Of a DNA stretch of 64,000 nucleotides, positions 3,666-55,078 are shown one piece after another. The stretch lies in contig JAILEY010000031.1 in assembly GCA_024687165.1 (NCBI GenBank), positions 1-64,000 on the forward strand. The letters are read 5' to 3'. The first letter of the stretch is position 1, and each line of letters opens with the position of its first letter. The stretch is from Treponema sp. (GTDB lineage: Bacteria > Spirochaetota > Spirochaetia > Treponematales > Treponemataceae). The notes beneath the pieces were generated by a model, which saw nothing but the letters and a program-made list of their open reading frames with translations, was not told the origin of the DNA and made no database searches. The position numbers and the translations under genes were made by a program.

Positions 3666-3696
3666 TAAGGGGAGAGTGATTCTTTTGTTTATCTTA

Positions 3697-3716
3697 TTTT
3701 TTTATTTTCCGATAAT
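3697..3716 (+). promoter_or_regulatory. Sigma-28-like promoter element before the SPASM gene
   Basis: The 20 bases TTTTTTTATTTTCCGATAAT recur exactly at 8873-8892 before the ATP-grasp gene. TCCGATAA resembles the flagellar sigma factor -10 (GCCGATAA). No good TAAA -35 is present at the usual 15-base distance; TTAT stands there. The box ends seven bases before the ATG at 3723. Confidence 0.5.
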
Positions 3717-3722
3717 GAAGTG

Positions 3723-5258
3723 ATGAAGAATATAGTTTTTTTATATGCGGGAAACTGCTGTGACCGTGTTTTTGATAAAGTATTTGATGAAAAATCTTCT
3801 TTTGATCTTACTGTAAAGTGGGCTCAGAATGTAAAGGAAAGTTCTGCAGTATTTATTTTGTGCACTGACCGTGAGGAAGATGCTGTAAGAAAAAATCTTG
3901 CACTGATTGCAGATAATGGTGCGTCTGTTATTTCTAAAGCGGAATGGAATACGCGTCTTTTAATTCAGACAATGGCGGAAGAATGTAAAAAACAGGGCGC
4001 TGAAAATGCAGTATTTACTTTTGCTGACAGACCTTTCATGGATTCTTACCTTTCAAATGAAGTAATTGAATGTCACAAAAAATATATTGCCGAATATACT
4101 TTTGCAGACGGATATCCATACGGCTTTTCTCCTGAAGTAATCAGTGCGGGAACATTGAATATTCTTAGCGGAATGGCTAAAGAAGAGCCTGTTGATAATG
4201 AGTGCATTTTTAATGTTATGAAGCAGGATATCAACAGTTTTGAAATTGAAGCTGTAATTGCTCCAAAGGATTACAGAATGCTCCGTTTTGATTTTTCATG
4301 CTCAGTTAAAAGAAATTTCATTGCTTGTAAAAGACTTTATGAAGCAGCAAAAGCTTCTGGTGTAAAGTTTAATGCAAAAGATCTTTCTGATTTTGCAGAA
4401 ACAAATGCAGCTGTACAAAAGACATTGCCTTCTTTTTACAATGTTCAGATCAGTTCAAAATATAATGCATTCCCATTTTATGCTCAGCCTCTTGAAGTTT
4501 ACTGCAAAGATAAAAGCGATATGAGCCTTGAAAAATTCAGCTGCCTTGTAAAACAGATCAGTGATTTTTCTGAGGATGCTGTTGTCTCTTTGAGTGCATC
4601 AGGAGAGCCTCTGCATATTTCAAATCTTGCAGAATATGTTAATAAAATTCTTGAGTTTCCAAAGCTTAAGGTTTTGATTGAAACTGATGGAACTCTTGTT
4701 ACGGAAGGACTTGCTTCTTCTATTGAAGCTCTTGGTGAAAAAGACAGAGTTATATGGATTATCGGAATTGATGCAGCAACTCCTGCAATGTATGAAAAAA
4801 TCTGGAAAAACGGTTCATTTGAAAAGGCTGTAAATGCAGTTTCAATTCTTGCAAAACATTTTTCACAGGTCTACCCGCAGTTTACAAGAATGAATGAAAA
4901 CGAAGAAGAACTTGAAGCTTTCTATAGATATTACCACGCAAAAGAATCACCTTCTCTTGGAAAATTAATAATTCAAAAATATGATTCTTTCTGCAAAATG
5001 CTTCCAGACAGAAAGCCTGCAGATCTTTCTCCTCTTACAAGAAATCCATGCTGGCATTTAAAAAGAGATATGACAATTTTGTGTGACGGAACAGTTCCTC
5101 TTTGCAGGGAATGTGTCGGCTCAGCAATCGGTAATGCTTTTGAAACTGACATTGAATCAATCTGGAAATTTTCAGACGAAAAAATTGAAGAGCATCTGAA
5201 ATCAAACTATTGCGGAAAATGTGGAGATTGTGATGAATATTATACCTTCAATTTTTAA
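3723..5258 (+). CDS. SPASM-domain protein without the radical-SAM cysteine motif (spiro-SPASM type)
   Basis: A 511-residue protein. The C-terminal 90 residues form a cysteine-rich SPASM-like domain (NPCWHL, LCDGTVPLCRECVG, then CGKCGDC) like those that bind auxiliary Fe-S clusters in radical-SAM maturases. The middle region (about 250-400) reads like the radical-SAM barrel (VSLSASGEPLH, VIWIIGIDA), but where CxxxCxxC should be there is PLEVYCKDKSDM with a single Cys. The N-terminal 200 residues look like a nucleotidyltransferase-type fold (CTDREED, FTFADRPFMD). I recall a spirochaete family called spiro-SPASM with these traits. ATG at 3723 is preferred over GTG at 3720. It overlaps the next gene, so the two are coupled. 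Function unknown; the neighbours point to a glycan or cell-envelope pathway. Confidence 0.75.
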   Translation: MKNIVFLYAGNCCDRVFDKVFDEKSSFDLTVKWAQNVKESSAVFILCTDREEDAVRKNLALIADNGASVISKAEWNTRLLIQTMAEECKKQGAENAVFTFADRPFMDSYLSNEVIECHKKYIAEYTFADGYPYGFSPEVISAGTLNILSGMAKEEPVDNECIFNVMKQDINSFEIEAVIAPKDYRMLRFDFSCSVKRNFIACKRLYEAAKASGVKFNAKDLSDFAETNAAVQKTLPSFYNVQISSKYNAFPFYAQPLEVYCKDKSDMSLEKFSCLVKQISDFSEDAVVSLSASGEPLHISNLAEYVNKILEFPKLKVLIETDGTLVTEGLASSIEALGEKDRVIWIIGIDAATPAMYEKIWKNGSFEKAVNAVSILAKHFSQVYPQFTRMNENEEELEAFYRYYHAKESPSLGKLIIQKYDSFCKMLPDRKPADLSPLTRNPCWHLKRDMTILCDGTVPLCRECVGSAIGNAFETDIESIWKFSDEKIEEHLKSNYCGKCGDCDEYYTFNF

Positions 5259-6207
5259 TCAGAAAAAAATCTCTTATACAGTTCTTGGCGGCGCAGAAAA
5301 TCCTTCGAAGGTTTTGATGAATGTCACCTGTATTGTCCTTTGTGAAAATGGAAATATGCTTCGCTCCCGTGTTCTTGAAAATCTTCTTGCAAAAGGTTTT
5401 GAGAGAATTATTATGATTGAAAGAAAAGCCCCGGGTGTTTCTGCTCAACAGCTTTCTCATCAATTTCCTACTGTTAGGTTTTTATACATACTGGAAGAGG
5501 GTGTAACCTCTGGAGAAATGCTTAATATCGCAGTTGCAGAATCAGAGAGTAAGTATATTCTTGTTGTGCATGAAGAAATGTGCGCGGAAAATTTTGACTT
5601 TGATGCTCATACTGCAAAACGGCTTTCAGAAAAAAATGTATTTTGTGTTGTACCGCGTCTTTTTTCAAATGCAATGCAAAAGCTTCCTGTTGAGTTTGAA
5701 CCTTCAGCAGAAAATTCAATTTTTAAAGTTGAAATTTTAAACGGCTCAAAAGATTACAGACCGACTTTATACAGCGCGTCTCTTGCAGGATTTTACGACA
5801 GAGAAAAAATTATCATGCTTGGCGGCTTTGATTACACAATCACTTCAGAATACTGGCAGAAGCTCGATTTCTTTTTTAGAAGCTGGCTTTGGGGTGAACA
5901 GACTATTATTGCAAATTGTTTTGATTTGTTTTACATGGATCAGATTCCCGATGAAGATCAGAGTGCGGATATTTCTTACTTAAGGTTTTATTTAAAAAAT
6001 CTTCTTCCTGTATTTGCTGCAGATCATGGAAAAATTCCGTCTTCATCTTTTCTTGCATTTAAAGCTCATTCTTCATGCGGATTTGTTGAATCGCTGAGAC
6101 AGTTCCGCGATGCATGTAGATGGACAGAAAAAAATAAATACCGATTTAAAACTGATGCCGTTAATCTTATGCAGAACTGGAATCAGAATGAAGCAGACAA
6201 ATTTTAG
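5233..6207 (+). CDS. Glycosyltransferase-like protein of unknown function
   Basis: A soluble protein of 324 residues with no signal peptide. The first 130 residues have the strand-helix rhythm of GT-A (family 2) transferases: CIVLCENGN, FERIIMIERKAPG, VRFLYILEEG, and ILVVHEEM at the place where a DXD motif would be expected. The metal-binding Asp pair is therefore not obvious and activity is uncertain. A later segment (LGGFDYTITSEYWQKLDFFFR) resembles the acceptor-side region of such enzymes. A GTG at 5221 is possible, but ATG at 5233 is a better start. It overlaps the end of the SPASM gene by 26 bases and ends 14 bases before the fusion gene, so all three are probably one transcript. Confidence 0.6.
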   Translation: MNIIPSIFNQKKISYTVLGGAENPSKVLMNVTCIVLCENGNMLRSRVLENLLAKGFERIIMIERKAPGVSAQQLSHQFPTVRFLYILEEGVTSGEMLNIAVAESESKYILVVHEEMCAENFDFDAHTAKRLSEKNVFCVVPRLFSNAMQKLPVEFEPSAENSIFKVEILNGSKDYRPTLYSASLAGFYDREKIIMLGGFDYTITSEYWQKLDFFFRSWLWGEQTIIANCFDLFYMDQIPDEDQSADISYLRFYLKNLLPVFAADHGKIPSSSFLAFKAHSSCGFVESLRQFRDACRWTEKNKYRFKTDAVNLMQNWNQNEADKF

Positions 6208-6221
6208 ATAAGGCGGATTAT

Positions 6222-8750
6222 ATGGGATTGGGGCAGATGATAAAGAATTTTTTTCCTCATAAAAAAAAGGTCGTTGTAATAGTGCAGTGCAGGCTTTCTT
6301 CAACACGACTAAATAGAAAAGCATTAAAGCCTCTTGGTGGAAAAACCGTTCTTGACTGGAATCTTGCTTCCATGAAAAAAGTTAAAGCAGATGATTATTT
6401 CGTTGCAACTGATGAAAGTAGTTTTGCAGAACTTGAGGCGATTGCAAAAAATCATGGATTTAAAATTTTTGCAGGAAGTCTTGAAGATGTTCTTGACCGT
6501 TTCTGTAAAGTTATAGAACTTTCAAAAGCTGATGTTGTAGTTCGCGCAACCGCTGATAATCCTTTTTTATTTTATGAAGCAGCAAATGATCTTGTTGAAG
6601 AATATTTTAAAAGAGAAAAAACTTCCCCTGTTGATTACATAACTTATTCAAATCTTCCTCATGGATCCGGTATAGAAATTTTTAATGCTCAGTCACTTTT
6701 GGAAGCCGCAGTTCTTACAGATGTTCCTTATGATCATGAGCATGTTGGTCCAAGCCTTTACAATTATCAGAAAATTTTTAAATGTAAATTTAAAACTCCT
6801 CCAGAAAGATATAATCATCCTGAATATAGAACGACTATTGATACCGCTGCAGATTACAGAAGGGCACTTCTTGCTGTTGATGAAATTTCCGGGACTCAGG
6901 ATGTTGTTGAACCTTATACAACTGAGCAGATTGTTGAGGTTTTTGCAAAGCCTTTCATCAAATATCCAGTTCTTCTTGTTCCGTCTGTAAAAAAGGGACA
7001 CGGTACAGGGCATTTAAGGCGCTGTCTTGATCTTGCAATAAAAAATAAATGGTTTATTTATATCGGTAATGATGCGGATTTAACTGAGCGTTGGGATTTG
7101 ATTGATTCTGCAGTAAATAACGGTCTTAGAAAATTTCAGATTGTTGATTCAATCGATGATGCTGAAAATTATTCAATGATTGTAACCGATATGTTCAAGA
7201 CTGATAAAAAGCTTCTTGAGAAACTCACTTCAAAAACTTCTGTAGTTTGTCTTGATGAAGGAAATGAAAATACAGATTCTGCTGAATATGTTCTTGATAT
7301 AATACCGACTGTTTCAAAAACAAGAACTGTAAATTTTTCAAATCCGTTTTTTATTCCTCTGTCTGAAAACAAAAAGTCTGAATCAGAAAAAGATTTTAAA
7401 AAAGCACTTGTTGTTTTTGGTGGAGAAGATCCTGCATCCCTTACACTTCCTGCATCACGTTCTCTTGCTAAAAATGGACTTAAGGTTACTGCGGTTGTTT
7501 CTTCTCAGCAGAAAAAAAATGAACTTGCTGAAAAAGTTTCAGATGATATAAAAGGGCTCATTGATTTTGTCCTGCCGATAGAAAATTTAAAGGAAAAACT
7601 TTACGAATATGATCTTGTCTTTACTCATTTTGGTTTTACGGCATTTGAAGCGTCGGGTGCGGGATGTGCAGTAATTCTTGCTGCAACAACATCTCTTCAC
7701 GGAAGTCTTGCTGCAGAATGTAATTTTAAATGTCTTTCGTTAAAGGATATTAATTCTAAAAAAGTAGGGGAGCTTCTGAAGAATAAATCTGCACTGTACA
7801 AAAAAATTGAATCAGAAAAAAAAGAAAGTCTTTCAGATTATCTTCTTAGACTTTCATGCGGAAATCATTTTTCTTGTCCTGTCTGCGGAAAAAAAGAATT
7901 TGAATTTTCCAATAAATTAATTGCACGTACAAAAGACAGAACTTTCAGAAGGTGCAGTGAATGCGGAATGATTTATATTTCATGGACTGTAAAGGAAAAA
8001 CAGACTGAATATAATCATGCGTACTTTTTTGAAGATTATCAGAAGCAGTACGGTAAAACATACCTCGATGATTTTGACTCAATCAAAAAGCAGTGCACAA
8101 GAAGAATTTCAAACATCAGTCTGCTGTATAAACTTGTAAATAAAACGGCTCATGTTTCAATCACTCCATCTGTTCTTGATATCGGGTGTGCAATGGGACC
8201 TTTCCTTTCTGCAGCAAGTGATTTCGGCTGGCAGGTTTTTGGTGCTGATATTTCAAGTGATGCAATTGATTATGTTCAGCATACATTGAAATTTCCTGCA
8301 GTCTGTGCTCCATTCCCGGGAACAAATTTCAGTGCAGAATTCGGTATTGAAAAATTTGATGCAGTTACAATGTGGTACGTTATAGAACATTTCCAGAATC
8401 TTTCTAAGGTACTTGAGTCAGTTGGAACTCTTGTTAAAAAAGACGGAATATTTGCATTCAGTACACCATCAGCTTCGGGAATAAGCGGAAAATATAACCG
8501 CCGTATTTTCTTTGATCAAAGCCCGTCAGATCATTTTTCTGTATGGGAAACTGACAGAGCTTCTTCTATATTAAAGAGATTCGGCTTTAAAGTAATTAAG
8601 GTAGTCCCTACAGGTATTCATCCGGAGAGACTTCCATTTGTAAAAAAGCATCATCTTGAAAAAAATGCCCTTGTAATGAAGCTTCTTAATGTCTGGTGCC
8701 GCTTTTTCAAGCTTGGGGATACTGTAGAGATTTACTGCAGAAAGATATAG
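6222..8750 (+). CDS. Three-domain fusion: SpsF-type cytidylyltransferase, PseG-like domain, SAM methyltransferase
   Basis: An 842-residue fusion. Residues about 14-240 are a cytidylyltransferase of the SpsF/NeuA/PseF type (VVVIVQCRLSSTRL, KPLGGKTVLDW, VVRATADNPF). Residues about 245-540 resemble PseG/MurG-like GT-B proteins: KKGHGTGHLRRCLDLA matches the GxGHxxRC motif of PseG nucleotide-sugar hydrolases, and THFGFTAFEASGAG is the typical late motif. Residues about 545-600 have two CxxC pairs (CPVCGKKEF, CSECGM) of a zinc ribbon, followed by a class I methyltransferase (VLDIGCAMGPFLSAA, MWYVIEHF). PseF and PseG belong to CMP-pseudaminate synthesis, used for flagellin glycosylation in other bacteria. 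That this protein acts in such a pathway is an inference; no sugar-acid synthase lies in the window. Confidence 0.85.
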   Translation: MGLGQMIKNFFPHKKKVVVIVQCRLSSTRLNRKALKPLGGKTVLDWNLASMKKVKADDYFVATDESSFAELEAIAKNHGFKIFAGSLEDVLDRFCKVIELSKADVVVRATADNPFLFYEAANDLVEEYFKREKTSPVDYITYSNLPHGSGIEIFNAQSLLEAAVLTDVPYDHEHVGPSLYNYQKIFKCKFKTPPERYNHPEYRTTIDTAADYRRALLAVDEISGTQDVVEPYTTEQIVEVFAKPFIKYPVLLVPSVKKGHGTGHLRRCLDLAIKNKWFIYIGNDADLTERWDLIDSAVNNGLRKFQIVDSIDDAENYSMIVTDMFKTDKKLLEKLTSKTSVVCLDEGNENTDSAEYVLDIIPTVSKTRTVNFSNPFFIPLSENKKSESEKDFKKALVVFGGEDPASLTLPASRSLAKNGLKVTAVVSSQQKKNELAEKVSDDIKGLIDFVLPIENLKEKLYEYDLVFTHFGFTAFEASGAGCAVILAATTSLHGSLAAECNFKCLSLKDINSKKVGELLKNKSALYKKIESEKKESLSDYLLRLSCGNHFSCPVCGKKEFEFSNKLIARTKDRTFRRCSECGMIYISWTVKEKQTEYNHAYFFEDYQKQYGKTYLDDFDSIKKQCTRRISNISLLYKLVNKTAHVSITPSVLDIGCAMGPFLSAASDFGWQVFGADISSDAIDYVQHTLKFPAVCAPFPGTNFSAEFGIEKFDAVTMWYVIEHFQNLSKVLESVGTLVKKDGIFAFSTPSASGISGKYNRRIFFDQSPSDHFSVWETDRASSILKRFGFKVIKVVPTGIHPERLPFVKKHHLEKNALVMKLLNVWCRFFKLGDTVEIYCRKI

Positions 8751-8767
8751 ATGCTGTACAGCATCGG

Positions 8768-8806
8768 TTTTGGACTGCTCAACACGACTGGAAGCCAATT
8801 TTATTA
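8768..8806 (+). repeat. Dispersed 39-bp intergenic repeat, copy A
   Basis: Consensus-like copy containing CTCAACACGACTGG followed by AAGCCAATTTTATTA. Related copies are at 14810, 25123, 27608 (inverted) and, partial, 58044; inverted-repeat relatives are at 25194 and 27666. It sits in the gap between the fusion gene and the ATP-grasp gene. Confidence 0.8.
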
Positions 8807-8872
8807 TTTTTTTTAGAAAATCGAACTTAGAATTAGACAGTATTTTTACGGATTTCATTTTTTATAATTTAT

Positions 8873-8892
8873 TTTTTTTATTTTCCGATAAT
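8873..8892 (+). promoter_or_regulatory. Sigma-28-like promoter element before the ATP-grasp gene
   Basis: Exact repeat of the 20 bases at 3697-3716, with the flagellar-type -10 TCCGATAA ending eight bases before the ATG at 8900. A weak -35 (TAAT) lies 15 bases upstream of the box. Confidence 0.5.
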
Positions 8893-8899
8893 TAGGAAA

Positions 8900-10438
8900 A
8901 TGGAAAAGTATATTTTGATTCTTGGCGCGGGGCTTATGCAGCGTCCTGCAATGGAAGCCGCCAGAGAACTTGGTTATAAAACTCTCGTTGTTGATGCAAA
9001 TCCTTCTGCAATTTGTGTTCCTTTTGCGGATCGTTTTGAACTTGTAGATTTAAAGGATCGTGAAGGAATTGCGAATCTTGCACTTTCACTTAAAGATCGG
9101 CTTGCTGCAATTTTTACAGCCGGTACAGATTTTAGTGCATCAGTTTCTTATGCCGCAGAAAAATGTGCCCTGCCTTCTCATTCCTTTGAAGCTGCCTGTA
9201 ATGCAAGCAATAAAGTCAGAATGAGGGAATGCTTTAAAAAACACAATGTTCCTTCTCCGGATTTTATAAGCGTAACAGAAAATGATATTCAGTCTATAGA
9301 ACAAAAAATTGATTCGTTTACTTTCCCGAAAGTTGTAAAACCTGTAGATAATATGGGTGCACGAGGCTGCCGGCTTGTCAGAACAAAAGAAGAGTTTATA
9401 CCTGCGCTGCGTGATGCCGTAAAATTTTCAAGAACAAAAAATGCAATCGTTGAAGATTACATGAAGGGCAGGGAGTATTCACTTGATGCTCTTGTCGTTG
9501 ATGGAAAAATTATTCTTACAGGATTTGCAGACCGTCATATTTATTTTGAGCCTTACTTTGTTGAGCTTGGGCACACCATGCCTTCTGAGTGCAGTGCAAA
9601 GGAAAAGCAGGAAATTACAGATGTCTTTCAGCAGGCAGTAACAGCTCTTGGTCTTACAAATGGAGTTGCAAAAGGTGACATTAAATATACTGAAAAAGGT
9701 GCGATGATTGGAGAAGTTGCAGCACGTCTTTCAGGCGGATATATGAGCGGATGGACTTTCCCTTATTCTTCCGATTTTAATCTTACAAAAGAAGCAATGA
9801 AAATTTCTCTTGGAATTACTCCTGAGTATAAAGATAAAGCAGAGATTCCTTCTGTAAAATTTTCTCATGAGCGTGCATTTATTTCGATTCCGGGCGTTGT
9901 AAAGGAAATTTATGGTGCTGAAGGAATTACAGGCTGTCCTTTTGTAAAAAATGTTTTCTTCCGCACAAAGATCGGTGATAAAGTTGATTTTCCGCGGAAT
10001 AATGTTGAAAAATGCGGCAACGTGATTACATGTTCAGAAAATCGAGAACTTTCGCTAAATGCGGCAGAAAAAGCTGTTTCTTCAATTATTTTGCGTCTTG
10101 AAGGTAATAATAAAGCAACAGAGGATTTCTTAAATGGAATTGAAGATCCTGTAGAAAAAGGTTTTCCGTACAGCTTTTTTACACTTGATGCTCAAAGTTT
10201 TGAAAAATTTAACAGTGAAATCGAAAAATCAGAATGCTGCGAAATTCCGCCGTGTCTTAAGGATAAAGCAGAGGTTCTTAAAGACTGGAATTACAGATCT
10301 ATAAAAGAAACTGTTGAACTTTATAAAAAATATGCACCTGAAAATGTGAAGCTTACAGGAAAAGAATTCTGGCGTGCATTGATCCGTGGTGGAATTCAGG
10401 GAGTTCTTTATATTGCTGATTCAAGGAGTCATGCATGA
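8900..10438 (+). CDS. ATP-grasp domain ligase, substrate unknown
   Basis: A 512-residue member of the ATP-grasp superfamily, which joins a carboxylate to an amine or thiol through an acyl-phosphate. The N-terminal pre-grasp Rossmann part (ILILGAGLMQRPAMEAA, VVDANPSAIC) is followed by the ATP-binding lid (FPKVVKPVDNMGARGC), VEDYMKGREYSLDALVVDG and GEVAARLSGGYMSGW. The last 200 residues are less typical. PurK/carbamoyl-phosphate synthase-like ligases of this shape make amino-acid or sugar adducts in many peripheral pathways, so the substrate cannot be named. It has its own sigma-28-like box and overlaps the amidase gene by four bases (ATGA). Confidence 0.85.
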   Translation: MEKYILILGAGLMQRPAMEAARELGYKTLVVDANPSAICVPFADRFELVDLKDREGIANLALSLKDRLAAIFTAGTDFSASVSYAAEKCALPSHSFEAACNASNKVRMRECFKKHNVPSPDFISVTENDIQSIEQKIDSFTFPKVVKPVDNMGARGCRLVRTKEEFIPALRDAVKFSRTKNAIVEDYMKGREYSLDALVVDGKIILTGFADRHIYFEPYFVELGHTMPSECSAKEKQEITDVFQQAVTALGLTNGVAKGDIKYTEKGAMIGEVAARLSGGYMSGWTFPYSSDFNLTKEAMKISLGITPEYKDKAEIPSVKFSHERAFISIPGVVKEIYGAEGITGCPFVKNVFFRTKIGDKVDFPRNNVEKCGNVITCSENRELSLNAAEKAVSSIILRLEGNNKATEDFLNGIEDPVEKGFPYSFFTLDAQSFEKFNSEIEKSECCEIPPCLKDKAEVLKDWNYRSIKETVELYKKYAPENVKLTGKEFWRALIRGGIQGVLYIADSRSHA

Positions 10439-12024: not shown

Positions 12025-13107
12025 ATGAAGAAGACTTTAGTTTTAACTGTTGCTGCAATGTTTATGGCAAGTGCTTTTGTAAGTGCAAAAGAATCTATTC
12101 TTATGGATTTTACACAGCTTGATGCTGATATCGTTGCAGATGAAAATGGAAATCCAACAGAAAACGGAAGAACTGTAATGGATTATTCAAGAGCTGCAGG
12201 TGCAACTTTCACAAGTGAACAGAAGTCACTTATGAAGACATCTTTGGCATTGACAAACTGGGAAGTTAAGCTCAACTCATCTGCTCAGAACCCTGTTGCT
12301 TTGGGTCTTTCACAGGTAGTAGCTGCTCCAGTTAAAGAATCAGCAGACGTTCCATTCAAAGGCAAGAACGTAATGGGTGTTCGCGTTAAGTTCCCAACAT
12401 GGGCAAACAATGCAAACTCAAAGATTGTTCCAGCATTTGATATCCCTGCTTATGAACCACTTTCAGACGCTGACGAAAATGGAAACCGCCAGAAGCCAAC
12501 AGATGAACAGAAGGGTAAATACCTCTTCGACGATGGTTACGGTGTTGTAAGAAATGTTGGTACACTTAAGTCAATTTCTGTTACAACAATGGGTATGAAC
12601 TTCCCACACCAGCTTTATGTTCTTCTTAAGGACACAGACGGTGTAGAACGCCGCTACCTCATGGGTAACCTTTTCTTCGACGGTTGGAAGACTCTTATCT
12701 GGAACAACCCGGATTACATTGCTGATGTTCGTGCACGTGAAATCCGTGTATACCCAATCTACCCACGTGGACTTCCACTTGTTAAGTTCGCTGGATTCCA
12801 GATTTGCCGCGATGCAAACCACATTGGTGACGACTTCATCGGTTACTTCAAGGATGTAAAGGTTATTTATGACCTCGCTGTTCTCAGCTCAGACCGTGAT
12901 ATCGATGATGAAGACCTCTGGGGAATCATCACAAAGAAGGAACTTGATCGCCAGACAGCTGAAATGGCTCGCTTTGGTAACAAGCAGGTTAACCGCTACC
13001 TCGAAAAGGCAAAGCAGTCTAAGGAAAATGAATTCACATCTTCAATTGATCCAGATTCATCTTCTTCAGCACAGAAGTCTAATCAGGATGCAGTTGATGC
13101 ACAGTAA
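12025..13107 (+). CDS. flaA: Flagellar filament outer layer (sheath) protein FlaA
   Basis: FlaA coats the FlaB core of the periplasmic flagellar filament in spirochaetes. The protein has a signal peptide (MKKTLVLTVAAMFMASAFVSA) and the family segments ESILMDFTQL, VMGVRVKFPTWANN, VSVTTMGM-like (ISVTTMGMNFPHQLYVLLKD), WKTLIWNNPDYI and EIRVYPIYPR. The last 50 residues are Ser/Gln/Lys-rich. At 360 residues it is of normal size. Codon use differs from the neighbours, with many C-ending codons for Phe, Tyr, Asn and Arg, as expected of a very highly expressed gene. It has its own promoter and a strong terminator, so it is monocistronic. Confidence 0.93.
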   Translation: MKKTLVLTVAAMFMASAFVSAKESILMDFTQLDADIVADENGNPTENGRTVMDYSRAAGATFTSEQKSLMKTSLALTNWEVKLNSSAQNPVALGLSQVVAAPVKESADVPFKGKNVMGVRVKFPTWANNANSKIVPAFDIPAYEPLSDADENGNRQKPTDEQKGKYLFDDGYGVVRNVGTLKSISVTTMGMNFPHQLYVLLKDTDGVERRYLMGNLFFDGWKTLIWNNPDYIADVRAREIRVYPIYPRGLPLVKFAGFQICRDANHIGDDFIGYFKDVKVIYDLAVLSSDRDIDDEDLWGIITKKELDRQTAEMARFGNKQVNRYLEKAKQSKENEFTSSIDPDSSSSAQKSNQDAVDAQ

Positions 13108-13162: not shown

Positions 13163-13302
13163 GTTTTAAATAAATTTTTTATTATAATTAATTCTTTTAA
13201 TTTAAGTTTATTTTAATTAATAAATATCTGTCTGCATTGTTTTAACAGATTATTTGAATTATACTTGTTTTATTCAGTTAAAATAATTTTAAGGAAATGC
13301 AG

Positions 13303-14571
13303 ATGAAAGAACTTCCAAATAAAAATGAAATACGGCTCAGATATGCTTCATACGGTCCCATGTTCATGGAGGTACTTGAGAAAATCGAGCTTAAACTTCG
13401 TCATACATTAAAGCTTTCCTCAAATCCGACCTATAAAAACAGAATTAAGTCATTTAACAGTTATTACAAGAAAATACTCCGTCAAAAGGCTGCAGAAGCG
13501 GGAAGCAGTACTAGCCTTGTTACTCTTACGGACATGATAGGCATACGTGTTGTTTGTCCTTTTGTAGAAGATCTTTCAATTGTTGAGCGTCAGATAAAAG
13601 AAAAGTTTGATGTAAGGGAAGTTGAGCGAAAAGGTGCTGAACAGTCTTTCCGTGAATTCGGTTATGAGTCTGTTCATATTTTGATTTCGATACCGGAAGA
13701 CTGCTACCCTACAGAAAATATTTCTATGAAGCTCCCGGAAGGAATGGTTTGTGAGATTCAGGTTCGTACAATTTTGCAGGATGCATGGGCTGAAGTTGAG
13801 CATGAACTGATTTATAAAAGTGAATTTAATCCTTTTGACAAGCCTCTTAGAAGAAAACTTGCTTCAATAAATGCGAGTTTAACATTGGCTGATATTATTT
13901 TCCAGGAAATACGCGATTATCAGAAAAAGCTGCAGACTGAACTTGGTACGCGTCGTAATACTTTTTATGAAAAGGCAGATGATTATTCTGATGAACTTCT
14001 TAAAATTCCGTCTGGTTCTTCGCATACACTGCCTCATTCTGAGTTCTTAAATGAAAATGAAGGTGTTGCAAGTCCCTATACGAAAGGAAGTATAGATGAT
14101 CTTGTTTTAACGGCGTTGCATGAGCATAACGTTGGAAATTTTGATAAGGCAATAGAAATCTATACTCAGATTCTAAACAGTGATCCTGAGCCTCCTGCAG
14201 TGGTTTTAAGCGTTATTTTTAAGCATCGTGGTATGGCGTATTTTGCTCAAAATCTCTATGATCAGGCTACAGAAGATTTTAAAAAGAGTGTCTCTCTTGA
14301 CCCTAAAAATTTCCGTTCAATTTATTATGAAGGAATCGTTAATTCTGTTCAGGGGAAGGACAGGGAAGCAATAGAATGTTTCAACAGGTCTCTTTCAATT
14401 GATTCGTTCCAGAGCCATGTATATTATCGCAGAAGCCTTGCTGAATATAATCTTGGTGAATATGCGGCTGCTATGTCTGATATAAATAACGCCATTAATC
14501 TTGGTCTGGAAGATGATGATGTAAAAGAATTGAAATCAAAGCTTGTTAAAAAGTTCGATATGAATATGTAA
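13303..14571 (+). CDS. RelA/SpoT-domain (p)ppGpp synthetase fused to TPR repeats
   Basis: The N-terminal 230 residues are a RelA/SpoT nucleotidyltransferase: KNRIKSFNSYYKKIL, LTDMIGIRVVCPFVEDL, REFGYESVHIL, EIQVRTILQDAWAEVEHELI. This is the fold that makes (p)ppGpp from GTP or GDP and ATP. There is no HD hydrolase, TGS or ACT domain, so it resembles small alarmone synthetases. Residues about 265-420 are tetratricopeptide repeats (FDKAIEIYTQIL, YDQATEDFKKSVSLD, REAIECFNRSLSID, YAAAMSDINNAINLG), probably a protein-binding surface. Start at 13303 is preferred because AAGGA is then seven bases away; ATG 13297 would leave one base. Another nucleotide product or a pyrophosphokinase without ppGpp activity is possible. 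Confidence 0.85.
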   Translation: MKELPNKNEIRLRYASYGPMFMEVLEKIELKLRHTLKLSSNPTYKNRIKSFNSYYKKILRQKAAEAGSSTSLVTLTDMIGIRVVCPFVEDLSIVERQIKEKFDVREVERKGAEQSFREFGYESVHILISIPEDCYPTENISMKLPEGMVCEIQVRTILQDAWAEVEHELIYKSEFNPFDKPLRRKLASINASLTLADIIFQEIRDYQKKLQTELGTRRNTFYEKADDYSDELLKIPSGSSHTLPHSEFLNENEGVASPYTKGSIDDLVLTALHEHNVGNFDKAIEIYTQILNSDPEPPAVVLSVIFKHRGMAYFAQNLYDQATEDFKKSVSLDPKNFRSIYYEGIVNSVQGKDREAIECFNRSLSIDSFQSHVYYRRSLAEYNLGEYAAAMSDINNAINLGLEDDDVKELKSKLVKKFDMNM

Positions 14572-17477: not shown

Positions 17478-19493
17478 CTAAAGCAGTGACTGCGGGTCTG
17501 TGTCTGTTTCTATGTAAACTTCCTTAGGACATTTATATCCCCATACAAGACGTTCTGCTAAAGACTGCAAATCCTTTATGTTTTTTCCTCTCAAAAGAAT
17601 CTGGTAGCGGTGATTTTGATTTACTGTTTCAAGCGGACATTCTGCAGGTCCAAGGACTTCCACTGATGCTCCTGCATATTTTTTTATGATGTTTCCTGCA
17701 GAGATTGCGGCTTGTGTTGCGGCATTTTTGTTTTTGGATCTGAATACAAGCCGTAATAATCTTGTGTATGGCGGAAAGTTGAGCAGCTTTCGTAATTCAA
17801 GTTCACGCTTGTAAAATCCGTCTGTGTTTCCTGAAACGCTGAATTTTATGGCGTCTGTTTCCGGTGAGTAAGTTTGAATTAAAACTTTTCCGTCTGGAAA
17901 AAATCTTCCGGCTCTTCCTGCAACCTGTGTTATAAGGCTGAAGGTTCTTTCGCTTGATCTGAAATCCGGCAGATGGAGCGTTGTGTCGGCAAGAATTACT
18001 CCAACCAGCTTTAGGTTCGGAAAATTAAGTCCCTTTGCAACCATTTGAGTTCCAAGAAGAATGTCGTATTCACCTTTTCTGAAGGCGTCAATTTTTTCCT
18101 GCAGCTCGCCCTTGTGGGAAATTGAATCGGTGTCAATTCTGATAACTCTTGCATTTGGAAATTTTGCTTTTACTTCTGCTTCAATATATTCCGTACCGAA
18201 ACCTGAGTAGCCTATATCCATTGAGCCGCATTGAGGGCATTGTGTTGGAGGAGAAACTGAATAACCGCAGTAATGACAGCGGAGTCTGTTTTCGCTTTTG
18301 TGGTATGTCATGGAAACAGAACAGTTTTTGCATTTCATTTCGTAGCCACAGTCAGCACATCTGAAAAAATGATTGAAGCCCCTTCTGTTTAAAAAGAGAA
18401 TCGTCTGTTTTTTTTCTTTTAGTGATGATTCAATTTCTTCCCTGAGTTTTGGAGAGATGCAGCTTCCGTCATTTTGTATCTGCGAAAGATTTATGCATTT
18501 GATTTGAGGTACAGCACCACCAGCAAGTCTTCTTGTAAGAACATGTTTTTTTATCTGCCCCTGGAGCATTGAATTGTAAGCTTCAAGAGATGGTGTAGCG
18601 CTTCCCATTACAAGCGGAATTTTGTTTCGCTTTGAACGTATCATGGCAAGCTGCCTTGCATGGTATCGCGGAGAAGAGCCTGACTTGTAGCTTGAGTCGT
18701 GTTCTTCATCGATTATTATGAGCCCAAGATCCGGGACTGGTGCAAAAACTGCGCTTCGTGCACCGATTACAACACGAGCTTCTTTTGAAAGTATGCGGTG
18801 CCACTGGTTAAGTTTCTGGCTTGGTGTAAGTTCACTGTGAAGAATTGCGGCAGTGTTTCCAAATCGATTTATAACGGCTTCCATAACCTGCGGGGTAAGG
18901 CCGATTTCCGGAACAAGATAAATTACTCCTTTTCCCTGTGAAAGCACTTTTTCTGCGGCTGTTAAAAAAACTTCTGTTTTTCCGCTTCCGGTCATTCCGT
19001 AAAGATAATGAAAACTTGTTTGATCTGTGGAGCTTGAAATAATTCCTTCGACTGCAGCTTTCTGTTCTTCACTGAGTTCTACATTTTTTTTGCTGAACGC
19101 TGATTCATCTTCTTCAAGCGGAAGTGTGGAATATTCACTTTCTCTTTTGCCGGACGGAATCATTATGTTTACGCATTCACCAATCGGTGCGATGTAGTAT
19201 TTGCTCATGAAAAGCGCAAGTTCGTAAAGCTCATGTGTAAGCAGCGGCTCCTTGTCCATGTAGCGCAATGCATGACGTATTTTGTCTTCTGAAACTGTGC
19301 AGGATTCTGGAAGCTGATCATATACTTCCGTAACAAAGCCCGTGAGTTTTCTGTTGCCGAATCTTACTTCAACTCTGAAACCAAACGGATCTTCTGGAAA
19401 AGAGGATTCTGGATTTTTAGCGGAAGCTTCCACATCTTTATAGGTGAATGTCTGGTTGAGCGGAACATTCAGTGCAACATTAAGGTATCTCAT
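17478..19493 (-). CDS. priA: Primosomal protein N' (replication restart helicase PriA)
   Basis: PriA reloads the replisome at collapsed forks. The N-terminal DNA-binding domain (about residues 1-110) precedes the helicase core with Walker A GMTGSGKTEVF, the DEEH box IIIDEEHDSSYK, and MGSATPSLEAY. The zinc-binding module is complete, with CADCGYEMKCKNC, LRCHYCGY and CPQCGS giving eight cysteines. Late motifs LLGTQMVAKGLNFP and QVAGRAGRF are present. At 671 residues it is slightly short but intact. It overlaps the uracil-DNA glycosylase gene by four bases, so it is the last gene of a three-gene operon. Confidence 0.96.
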   Translation of the reverse strand: MRYLNVALNVPLNQTFTYKDVEASAKNPESSFPEDPFGFRVEVRFGNRKLTGFVTEVYDQLPESCTVSEDKIRHALRYMDKEPLLTHELYELALFMSKYYIAPIGECVNIMIPSGKRESEYSTLPLEEDESAFSKKNVELSEEQKAAVEGIISSSTDQTSFHYLYGMTGSGKTEVFLTAAEKVLSQGKGVIYLVPEIGLTPQVMEAVINRFGNTAAILHSELTPSQKLNQWHRILSKEARVVIGARSAVFAPVPDLGLIIIDEEHDSSYKSGSSPRYHARQLAMIRSKRNKIPLVMGSATPSLEAYNSMLQGQIKKHVLTRRLAGGAVPQIKCINLSQIQNDGSCISPKLREEIESSLKEKKQTILFLNRRGFNHFFRCADCGYEMKCKNCSVSMTYHKSENRLRCHYCGYSVSPPTQCPQCGSMDIGYSGFGTEYIEAEVKAKFPNARVIRIDTDSISHKGELQEKIDAFRKGEYDILLGTQMVAKGLNFPNLKLVGVILADTTLHLPDFRSSERTFSLITQVAGRAGRFFPDGKVLIQTYSPETDAIKFSVSGNTDGFYKRELELRKLLNFPPYTRLLRLVFRSKNKNAATQAAISAGNIIKKYAGASVEVLGPAECPLETVNQNHRYQILLRGKNIKDLQSLAERLVWGYKCPKEVYIETDTDPQSLL

Positions 19494-27607: not shown

Positions 27608-27646
27608 TAATAAAATTGGCTTCCAGTCGCGTTGAGCAGTCCAAAA
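27608..27646 (-). repeat. Dispersed 39-bp intergenic repeat, copy F (inverted)
   Basis: Reverse complement of the consensus: TAATAAAATTGGCTTCCAGT, then CGCGTTGAGCAGTCCAAAA. Read on the minus strand it is almost identical to copy A at 8768-8806. Confidence 0.85.
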
Positions 27647-27823: not shown

Positions 27824-28369
27824 TCAGCGTTTAATAAACTGAATGTAGTCAAGACTCATTCCTGTGTGACCAAGTCTTGTATCGCTGTTAGCCTGGATTG
27901 TAATGAGAATTGTTCTTGGCTCATCGATTGTAAAGTAAATTGGTGCGCGTGTTGTAAGTTCCCATGATCCTAAAGGAGGATTGCTCGGGTAAACACGGAA
28001 TGGTTCAGTATCAACGTATACGTAAAATGCACTGTGCTTTGAATCCATGGCTTTTTCGTTCAGAAGGCCGGCATAAGTACCTGCAGGAAATTTGATTTTA
28101 ACCTGAGCAGTTGCGGCTTCATTTAAAAGACGTGTTGCAAAAAGTCCGCTTGCATCCTTGTCATAAAGAACAAGGAAATTTTTCAAAAGCATATTCTCGC
28201 ATTCATATTTGATTCCGTTTCCTGTAAACTCAATTATCGGAAGTTCTGTTTGAAGTGCCGGTGGCTCCGGTGGAGTTTCAATGTGAATAAATTCTCCTTC
28301 TTTTGTTGTATGACATGATGTAAAAGCAAATGAAGCAACTAGCAATGCAAAAAAAGCAATTTTTTTCAT
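27824..28369 (-). CDS. Lipoprotein with a beta-sandwich domain, function unknown
   Basis: A 181-residue lipoprotein: the signal peptide MKKIAFFALLVASFAFTSC ends in the lipobox FTSC, so Cys19 is the lipidated residue. The mature protein is about 160 residues and beta-rich (KYECENMLLKNFLVLYDKD, AQVKIKFPAGTYAGLLNEK, ILITIQANSDTRLGHTGMS, DYIQFIK). The layout, ending in LDYIQF, recalls carbohydrate-binding-module jelly rolls, but sugar binding is not shown by the sequence. A GCCGATAA box lies upstream at 28400-28393 (minus strand). AGAGGA precedes the ATG. It is 31 bases from pcrA in the same direction. Confidence 0.75.
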   Translation of the reverse strand: MKKIAFFALLVASFAFTSCHTTKEGEFIHIETPPEPPALQTELPIIEFTGNGIKYECENMLLKNFLVLYDKDASGLFATRLLNEAATAQVKIKFPAGTYAGLLNEKAMDSKHSAFYVYVDTEPFRVYPSNPPLGSWELTTRAPIYFTIDEPRTILITIQANSDTRLGHTGMSLDYIQFIKR

Positions 28370-28392: not shown

Positions 28393-28400
28393 TTATCGGC
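28393..28400 (-). promoter_or_regulatory. Sigma-28-like -10 box before the lipoprotein gene
   Basis: GCCGATAA on the minus strand matches the flagellar sigma -10 exactly, 23 bases before the lipoprotein ATG and directly after the pcrA stop codon. No TAAA -35 is at the expected distance, so this may be chance. Confidence 0.25.
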
Positions 28401-36182: not shown

Positions 36183-36190
36183 AAATTTTT

Positions 36191-36518
36191 CCGGTTTTGC
36201 GAAGCAAAATGGACGCGGATGCGGACAAGGGAAAATTTAAAAAATAAAATGATGATGCCGGAGGCATCATACGTTTTTTCATATACATTCTGGTTTTGCG
36301 AAGCAAAATGGACGCGGATGCGGACAAGGAAAAATTTAAAAAATAAAATGTTGATGACGAAGTCATCATACGTTTTTTTCATATACATTCCGGTTTTGCG
36401 AAGCAAAATGGACGCGGATGCGGACAAGGGAAAATTTAAAAAATAAAATGATGATGCCGGAGGCATCATACGTTTTTTCATATACATTCTGGTTTTGCGA
36501 AGCAAAATGGACGCGGAT
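36191..36518 (+). repeat. Tandem array of about 3.3 copies of a 99-100 bp unit with two hairpins
   Basis: Units run 36191-36289, 36290-36389, 36390-36488 and a partial copy 36489-36518. Each has the hairpin TTTTGC-GAA-GCAAAA, a GGACGCGGATGCGGAC block and a second hairpin. In units 1 and 3 this is ATGATGCC-GGA-GGCATCAT; in unit 2 it is TGATGAC-GAA-GTCATCA, so both arms changed together. The array fills the gap of about 550 bp between flgE and the truncated barrel gene. Open frames across it have no ribosome sites and only echo the repeat. Confidence 0.92.
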
Positions 36519-54289: not shown

Positions 54290-55078
54290 ATGGCAACTCA
54301 AGTACTAGATGAAAATGAAGAAATAGAACTCTGGAAGGAATTCAAAAAGACAAAGTCCGTTGCGATCAGGGACAGGCTTATCCGTCAGTATATGCCTCTT
54401 GTAAAGTGGGTCGCTGGCAGAGTGTCTTCAGGTATGCCTGACAGTGTTGAATTTGATGATCTTGTTGGTTTTGGTCAGTTTGGACTTCTTGATGCAATCA
54501 ATAAATTTGATGTTGATAAAGGCGTAAAATTCAAGACTTACGCTTCTACCCGTATTCGCGGTGCCATATTTGATGAATTGCGTGAAATGGACTGGGTTCC
54601 TCGTTCTGTTCGTCAGAAATCAAAAGAAATAGAAGATGCAATTGTTGAGCTTGAAGCAAAACTCGGGCGTACAGCATCTGATGCAGAAATTGCACAGTCA
54701 ATGAATATGACGGAAGCTGAATATCAGAATACGATTATGAAAGTCAGCGGAACAAGTGTGCTTTCGTTGAATGATGTGTGGTATTCAGGTGATGACAGTG
54801 AGCATATTTCAATCGGAGATAGTATTGAAGCTCCAAATAGTCTTAATCCGGATGTAATTGTTGAACGAGAGGAAGTTCGTCGTGTAATTATTCAGGCAAT
54901 AGAAGAGCTTCCTCAGAATGAAAAAATGGTTATTGTTCTTTATTATCATGAAGATCTTTCATTTAAAGAAATTGGCCAGGTTCTTAATGTAAGTGAGAGC
55001 CGAATCAGTCAGCTTCATACAAAAGCAAACTTGAGATTGAGAGCAAAGCTTACAAGCATCAAGAAGGGGATTTTTTAG
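54290..55078 (+). CDS. fliA: Flagellar sigma factor FliA (sigma-28, WhiG type)
   Basis: This sigma factor directs RNA polymerase to late flagellar promoters. Region 2 reads IRQYMPLVKWVAGRV, FDDLVGFGQFGLLDAINKFD and FKTYASTRIRGAIFDELREM, then DWVPRSVRQK; region 4 is IEELPQNEKMVIVLYYHEDL followed by SFKEIGQVLNVSESRISQLH. Length 262, as for the WhiG subgroup. Candidate target boxes of this type lie at 3708 and 8884. It lies between the membrane protein gene and fapA. Confidence 0.96.
   Translation: MATQVLDENEEIELWKEFKKTKSVAIRDRLIRQYMPLVKWVAGRVSSGMPDSVEFDDLVGFGQFGLLDAINKFDVDKGVKFKTYASTRIRGAIFDELREMDWVPRSVRQKSKEIEDAIVELEAKLGRTASDAEIAQSMNMTEAEYQNTIMKVSGTSVLSLNDVWYSGDDSEHISIGDSIEAPNSLNPDVIVEREEVRRVIIQAIEELPQNEKMVIVLYYHEDLSFKEIGQVLNVSESRISQLHTKANLRLRAKLTSIKKGIF

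What the first reader, a model, noticed from the sequence alone, without database searches (positions are those of the whole stretch)
3697..8892. Shared 20-base sigma-28-like element before two glycan-type genes
The exact 20-mer at 3697 and 8873 contains TCCGATAA, one base from the flagellar sigma -10, and ends 7-8 bases before each ATG. It links the SPASM-containing operon and the ATP-grasp/amidase/flaA region to late flagellar expression. Since the operon includes a PseF/PseG-like fusion, flagellin glycosylation is a natural hypothesis. The -35 is weak.
Basis: partly seen in the sequence, partly recalled or inferred. Interest (0 to 1): 0.62.

Follow-up and report, generated by a model that had tools for sequence, protein, structure and literature searches.

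The report
Leaderless flagellar promoter of sugar operon
In spiral bacteria related to Treponema, a sugar-modification operon seems to be switched on by a flagellum-type promoter placed so close to the first gene that the messenger RNA probably begins at the start codon itself, an arrangement kept across many genera.

Summary
The repeat is real: TTTTTTTATTTTCCGATAAT occurs exactly at 3697-3716 and 8873-8892, more than chance gives. Its core is a flagellar (sigma-28/FliA) -10.

Upstream of the first gene (spiroSPASM, 3723-5258) this core is conserved: it lies 7-10 nt before the start codon in 28 of 30, 61 of 80 and 30 of 30 homologues in three overlapping samples. An independent -35 at spacing 16-17 appears in 36 of 40 non-redundant genus sequences and 20 of 30 from elsewhere. 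A FliA/WhiG gene lies in the window.

The published T. denticola flaB2 start site lies 8 nt after CCGATAA, so transcription here should begin at or within about 3 nt of the ATG: a leaderless mRNA. Of 19 named homologues without the motif, 13 carry a TATAAT-like box 6-9 nt before the ATG instead.

Glycan function is plausible, not shown. The second site (ATP-grasp gene) was matched only in three close relatives, 3 of 63 homologues. flaA has a separate sigma-70-like promoter sequence. No expression data were available.

The parts
3697..3716 (+). first copy of the exact 20-mer
3709..3715 (+). sigma-28-type -10 (CCGATAA), 7 nt before the ATG at 3723
   Evidence: conserved in homologues
3688..3692 (+). 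weak -35: TTTA at spacing 17 or TTAT at spacing 16
   Evidence: homologues have T[ACT]AA at spacing 16-17
3723..5258 (+). spiroSPASM protein: N-terminal domain, radical-SAM-like domain without its three cysteines, SPASM domain; predicted leaderless
   Evidence: TIGR04321 541.7 bits, cut-off 250; alignment
5233..6207 (+). conserved protein with a GT-A glycosyltransferase-like predicted fold
   Evidence: no NCBIfam or Pfam hit; model pLDDT 87.3; best PDB matches polypeptide GalNAc-transferases, E 3e-11
6222..8750 (+). fusion: cytidylyltransferase (SpsF/NeuA-like), PseG/SpsG-like part, methyltransferase
   Evidence: PF02348 E 2.4e-28, PF13489 E 2.1e-22; TIGR03590 E 1.1e-7, below cut-off; PDB 6oew E 5.8e-23
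8873..8892 (+). second copy of the exact 20-mer
8885..8891 (+). sigma-28-type -10 (CCGATAA), 8 nt before the ATG at 8900
   Evidence: like elements in L163, L164, L165
8865..8868 (+). weak -35 TAAT at spacing 16
8900..10438 (+). ATP-grasp ligase with LAL_C2 domain
   Evidence: PF13535, PF18603
10435..11469 (+). N-acetylmuramoyl-L-alanine amidase
   Evidence: PF01520
11469..11924 (+). Germane-domain (GerMN-like) protein
   Evidence: PF10646
11952..11980 (+). sigma-70-like promoter sequence before flaA (TTGACA-N17-GATACT)
12025..13107 (+). flaA, flagellar filament sheath protein
   Evidence: PF04620
54290..55078 (+). FliA/WhiG sigma factor (sigma-28), the likely reader of the element
   Evidence: NF004935 389.8 bits, cut-off 343; TIGR02479 288.5, cut-off 189.6

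Best explanation
The shared element is the -10 part and T-rich spacer of two sigma-28 (FliA) promoters. The one before the spiroSPASM operon is old in this order of spirochetes. Its -10 sits where RNA polymerase would start on, or within a few nucleotides of, the A of the start codon, so spiroSPASM is made from a leaderless or near-leaderless mRNA without a Shine-Dalgarno site; downstream genes are translated by coupling or their own sites. FliA activity at the late stage of flagellum assembly would thus switch on an operon (spiroSPASM, a GT-A-fold transferase, and a cytidylyltransferase/PseG-like/methyltransferase fusion) that probably prepares and attaches a nonulosonic-acid-type sugar to flagellar filament proteins. 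Shown by sequence: the bipartite promoter, its conservation, the fixed spacing to the ATG, the FliA gene. Inferred: FliA dependence, the start site, leaderless translation, glycan function. In the window's close clade a second promoter of the same type stands before the ATP-grasp gene.
For: -10 core 7-10 nt before the start codon in 28 of 30 loci, 61 of 80, 30 of 30; the samples overlap. Independent -35 T[ACT]AA, TTTA or TTAT at spacing 16-17: 36 of 40 and 20 of 30 non-redundant upstream regions; two-wide control windows gave 1-17 (the 17 far upstream) and 0-4. G before CCG in 25 of 40 and 27 of 30. T. denticola flaB2 mapped promoter is CCGATAA/TTAA with the start site 124 bp from the ATG (PMC9481697 passages); in that sequence this is 8 nt after CCGATAA. 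C. jejuni sigma-28 CGATwt lies 6-8 nt before start sites (PMC3847290 passages). Sigma swap with position held: 13 of 19 motif-less homologues have a TATAAT-like box at 6-9 nt, other windows 0-3. Leaderless layout looks general here: among 363 other genes TATAAT-like boxes peak at exactly 6 nt (25 genes, mostly 1-7 at other distances). FliA gene. spiroSPASM and flagellin: 94 genomes both, 5 neither, 3 flagellin only, 0 spiroSPASM only, of 102. NeuB-like synthase and Maf/PseD-like protein on the contig of two flaB genes.
Against: No transcript or protein data. In the window itself the -35 is poor. TAAA-N15-18-CCGAWAA is not enriched in this genome (41 against 55 control). Some homologues have no clear promoter (L196, L203, L217, L221, L231), and 13 use a sigma-70-like box, so FliA control is not indispensable. 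G047 (96% complete) has flagellins but no spiroSPASM. The five genomes lacking both all belong to one family, so they may be one to a few losses. Other genes of this genome with the same layout encode RlmE, VWA and RlpA-like proteins, not plainly flagellar. Purine-rich bases before some ATGs (AGGAG in T. denticola) could act in translation if the start site lies further upstream.
Confidence: 0.72

Rival explanations
1. The promoter is sigma-28-type but the mRNA has a usable leader: transcription starts upstream of the purine-rich stretch, which then serves as a ribosome-binding site.
For: Purine-rich stretches between the -10 and the ATG in several homologues (AGGAG in T. denticola and relatives).
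Against: With 7-8 nt between -10 and ATG, a start early enough to include such a site would have to lie inside the -10 or 1-3 nt after it; the mapped T. denticola distance is 8 nt. Many homologues have no such stretch. The sigma-70-type homologues keep nearly the same spacing.
Confidence: 0.15
2. CCGATA is not a promoter element but a regulator site or a translation-start signal.
For: The motif hugs the start codon; bare CCGATAA is frequent in the genome.
Against: A separate -35 at the sigma-28 spacing was found without being selected for; a TATAAT box takes its place in other lineages; the same motif is a mapped promoter 124 bp from a start codon in T. denticola flaB2.
Confidence: 0.07
3. The promoter reading is right but the operon serves something other than flagellin glycosylation, for example a surface polysaccharide or lipid sugar.
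For: Function is inferred from domains; the PseG and NeuB/PseI matches are below curated cut-offs; the same promoter layout is found at non-flagellar genes.
Against: Co-occurrence with flagellin genes, FliA-type promoter, glycosyltransferase-like fold, Maf/PseD-like protein; T. denticola FlaBs carry a 450.2-Da glycan needed for filament assembly (PMC9481697 passage).
Confidence: 0.3
4. The 20-base identity of the two sites is a chance result in T-rich DNA or a recent copying event and has no meaning beyond the -10. (This can be true together with the best explanation.)
For: The spacer sequence is not kept in the closest relatives.
Against: Chance is unlikely under a dinucleotide model (0.017 expected repeated 20-mers), though local T-tracts are not fully modelled.
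Confidence: 0.6

Closest known systems
T. denticola flaB2 (TDE1004) sigma-28 promoter (PMC9481697, passages read)
   Same: -10 CCGATAA, -35 TTAA at spacing 16; same family of bacteria
   Different: flaB2 has a 124-nt leader; the spiroSPASM start is predicted at or next to the ATG
Leaderless mRNAs of Leptospira interrogans (PMC5243855, passages) and Campylobacter jejuni (PMC3847290, passages)
   Same: start site at the start codon, -10 a few nt before the ATG
   Different: C. jejuni leaderless genes are described with sigma-70 -10 boxes; in the Leptospira passages read, no leaderless sigma-28 gene is named
Bacillus subtilis sps legionaminic-acid pathway (PMC7439481, passages)
   Same: cytidylyltransferase (SpsF), SpsG and SpsE steps of nonulosonic acid synthesis and activation; that SpsG is PseG-like and SpsE NeuB-like is recalled
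   Different: here the SpsF-like and SpsG-like parts are fused with a methyltransferase, under a flagellar promoter, with a spiroSPASM partner
spiro-SPASM family TIGR04321
   Same: 541.7 bits against a cut-off of 250
   Different: CX3CX2C radical-SAM motif absent here and in the same-genus sequences aligned, present in the other-family ones

Membership tests
sigma-28 (FliA) promoter | -10 (G)CCGATAA or close variant | tested here: met
   TCCGATAA at both sites; GCCGATA predominant in homologues
sigma-28 (FliA) promoter | -35 TAAA-like at spacing 15-16 before GCCGATAA | tested here: inconclusive
   met in homologues of spiroSPASM; weak in the window's own two sites
sigma-28 (FliA) promoter | FliA present in the genome | tested here: met
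   54290-55078
sigma-28 (FliA) promoter | transcription lost without FliA | not testable with these tools
   needs a fliA mutant
leaderless mRNA | -10 placed so that +1 falls at the start codon | tested here: met
   7-10 nt in homologues, against a mapped 8 nt
leaderless mRNA | mapped 5' end at 0-10 nt from the start codon | not testable with these tools
   needs 5'-RACE or dRNA-seq
TIGR04321 spiro-SPASM | score over curated cut-off | tested here: met
   541.7 against 250 bits
active radical SAM enzyme | CX3CX2C cluster motif | tested here: not met
   ISSKYNAFPFYAQP in the window protein
PseG / SpsG hydrolase | score over curated cut-off of TIGR03590 | tested here: not met
   31.8 against 153.55 bits, partial match
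nonulosonic-acid pathway | NeuB-family synthase in the genome | tested here: met
   PF03102 E 7.6e-62, 16 of 16 genomes tested; below the PseI and NeuB equivalog cut-offs

The most novel reading that the evidence does not exclude
The trait under selection is leaderlessness itself: across many genera the start of transcription of the spiroSPASM operon is held at the start codon, even where the promoter class changed from sigma-28 to sigma-70. A flagellar glycan operon would then be controlled at two levels, by FliA timing and by ribosomes or initiation factors that favour leaderless mRNAs.
Probability: 0.45. Interest if true: 0.72.

Novelty: new variant of a known kind. Interest (0 to 1): 0.6.

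Why it matters
The genes that build the flagellin glycan of Treponema, reported as essential for filament assembly in T. denticola, were not named in the passages read here. A conserved FliA-type promoter points to one operon, present also in T. denticola and in a 1.14-Mb genome that is probably T. pallidum, and gives a direct test. It also offers a case in which leaderless layout can be followed across an order of bacteria and through a change of sigma factor.

Tried and rejected
Genome-wide TAAA-N15-18-CCGAWAA as a regulon finder: 41 hits against 55 for the reversed control, so not used. Bare CCGATAA enrichment: in the window mostly coding, not used as evidence. That the ATP-grasp promoter is as widespread as the first: rejected, 3 of 63 homologues in the named loci, all near relatives of the window (tree). 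That flaA is under the element: doubted because of its own promoter sequence; read-through is not excluded. Conserved TTGTTCAA upstream in the genus: read by eye as the -35 of a divergent promoter of the neighbouring xseA; not tested. Number of sigma-70 switches: the tree gives s70 in two clades, but with the unclear rows left out one change is enough, so it is left open.

Paper searches: Treponema, flagellin, glycosylation, sigma28; Treponema, leaderless, transcription start site, FliA; Treponema denticola, flagellin, glycan; spiro-SPASM, SPASM domain, spirochete (no paper); Treponema denticola, legionaminic acid; leaderless, sigma28, flagell; Treponema, leaderless; Treponema, flagellin glycosylation, 450.2; Treponema, spsF, flagell (the one paper's SpsF line is in its table for F. 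nucleatum). In the listings and passages seen I met no leaderless sigma-28 gene and no study of spiroSPASM; the library lacks most subscription papers, the 2017 glycan paper among them.
Full report
WHAT IS THERE. The exact 20-mer is at 3697-3716 and 8873-8892 and is the only direct 20-base repeat seen in the window outside a tandem array near 36.2 kb; a dinucleotide model gives 0.017 repeated 20-mers. It holds TCCGATAA; from the last A of CCGATAA there are 7 and 8 nt to the ATGs at 3723 and 8900. The window comes from a 2.38-Mb genome in 87 contigs, a treponeme by its neighbours.

GENES. 3723-5258 is a spiroSPASM protein (TIGR04321). 5233-6207 matches no family, but its AlphaFold2 model (pLDDT 87.3, 23 sequences) is closest to polypeptide GalNAc-transferases and TarP, which are GT-A-fold glycosyltransferases (TM-scores about 0.5-0.6, identity 11-14%; the fold name is from general knowledge). 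6222-8750 fuses a cytidylyltransferase, a PseG-like part (weak) and a methyltransferase. Then follow an ATP-grasp ligase, an amidase, a Germane-domain protein and flaA. ORFs of the same sizes in the same order (spiroSPASM, ORF2, fusion, and usually three more) recur in most of the 37 named loci examined (L183 differs, others are cut by contig ends). In T. denticola and the 1.14-Mb genome the first three genes stand together and amidase, Germane protein and flaA lie elsewhere in the stretches taken; the ATP-grasp gene was not found in those stretches.

PROMOTER CONSERVATION. For spiroSPASM homologues, CCGAWA lies 7-10 nt before the start codon in 28 of 30 loci out of a search of 59 genomes (missing in L087 and L094; the window's own locus is among the 30). 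With a slightly wider pattern ([CT]CGA[TA][AT]) it lies at 7-9 nt in 61 of 80 named loci, and as CCGATA at 7-10 nt in 30 of 30 loci from other genera of the family (one, in the 1.14-Mb genome, before a GTG). The samples overlap in genomes. The -35 was not used to select sites, yet T[ACT]AA, TTTA or TTAT stands at spacing 16-17 in 36 of 40 and 20 of 30 non-redundant sequences; T[ACT]AA alone was never seen at spacing 13-15 or 18-19 in the first set. This is the sigma-28 layout (consensus recalled; it agrees with the mapped T. denticola promoter). A FliA/WhiG gene is at 54290-55078. In this genome two of three flaB genes have TAAAG-N-CCGAAAA upstream; for the third only a TATAAT-like box was noticed by eye. 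In relatives 10 of 29 flaB loci, one per genome, match T[AT]A[AG]-N15-17-[CT]CGA[TA][AT] within 600 nt (the other 19 do not).

LEADERLESS LAYOUT. In T. [quoted passage not shown] In the sequence recognised by the paper's primer this is an A, 8 nt after CCGATAA. Most spiroSPASM ATGs begin 7 or 8 nt after it, so the start site should fall on the A of the ATG; at 10 nt (several genera of the family and other families) a leader of up to about 3 nt would remain. C. jejuni sigma-28 boxes lie 6-8 nt before start sites (PMC3847290, passages). Of the 19 named loci without the motif, 13 have a TATAAT-like hexamer 6-9 nt before the ATG, against 0-3 in other windows of the same width; L237 has the motif but masked bases, five have no clear promoter. 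On the tree the sigma-70 type forms two clades inside the sigma-28 type. Among 363 other genes with free upstream space, TATAAT-like boxes peak sharply at 6 nt (25 genes), so leaderless genes appear common in these bacteria, as reported for Leptospira (about 440; PMC5243855, passages). In the window's genome CCGATAAN7-8ATG occurs 17 times against 3 for the reversed pattern; by ORF length and lack of overlap I judge eight of the 17 believable gene starts, the two sites of the finding included. The other six are a VWA protein, a DUF4015 protein, an RlpA/SPOR-like protein, an FtsJ-family (RlmE-like) methyltransferase, and two proteins without family.

SECOND SITE. Before the ATP-grasp gene a CCGAAAA or TCGAAAA box 9-10 nt before the ATG was found in L163, L164 and L165, 3 of 63 homologues. 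In the tree these and the window form one starred group of four. Their -35s, TTAA or TAAA at spacing 16-17, were read by eye. One locus of another family, L116 (G039), also shows CCGATAA 8 nt before the ATG, and in L126 (G035) a CCGATAA lies further upstream; these were not pursued.

FUNCTION. spiroSPASM tracks flagellin genes: of 102 genomes 94 have both, 5 neither, 3 flagellin alone (G008 and G023, incomplete; G047, 96% complete) and none spiroSPASM alone (spiroSPASM counted at the family cut-off; Fisher p 7e-7, which ignores relatedness, all five being from one family). All 16 genomes tested have a NeuB-family protein; in this genome it lies on the contig of two flaB genes, with a Maf/PseD-like protein. 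T. denticola FlaBs carry a 450.2-Da glycan needed for filament assembly (PMC9481697, passage). The B. subtilis sps pathway uses SpsF, SpsG and SpsE for legionaminic acid (PMC7439481, passages). That the operon serves this glycan is my inference. The spiroSPASM protein here is unlikely to be an ordinary radical SAM enzyme: its three cluster cysteines are gone, as in the same-genus sequences aligned, while those of other families have them.

VERDICT. A real, conserved sigma-28-type promoter with leaderless geometry for the first gene; a narrowly distributed one for the ATP-grasp gene; flaA separate. FliA dependence, start site and glycan role need experiments.

Noticed in passing
window 3723-5258; A1 alignment: spiroSPASM proteins of the window's genus have lost all three radical-SAM cysteines while keeping the SPASM cysteines; other families of the order keep both.
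   Followed up: partly
window, L295, L296, L163-L242: TATAAT-like boxes peak exactly 6 nt before the ATG in 363 genes, suggesting that leaderless sigma-70 genes are common in these treponemes.
   Followed up: partly
window, about 36189-36500: tandem repeat with copies about 99 bases apart, near an ORF on the - strand.
   Followed up: no
window 8785-8806 and 27608-27629: an inverted 22-base match; the first copy lies upstream of the second promoter.
   Followed up: no
window 28393-28399, - strand: CCGATAA about 23 nt before the ATG of the ORF 27824-28369, another possible sigma-28 site with a short leader.
   Followed up: no
L295:9846-10973 and 17788-19278, - strand: NeuB-family synthase and Maf/PseD-like protein on the contig that carries two flaB genes.
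   Followed up: partly
window 13297-14571; L299: a RelA/SpoT-like protein with TPR repeats follows flaA here and in T. denticola.
   Followed up: no
L086, upstream of spiroSPASM: several direct repeats containing CCGATAATGACAG within about 100 bases upstream of spiroSPASM in one genome.
   Followed up: no
L190:1435, L205:1252, L196:2346, L199:2355: TPR-containing secreted proteins with CCGATA 7 nt before the ATG, possible further leaderless sigma-28 genes.
   Followed up: partly
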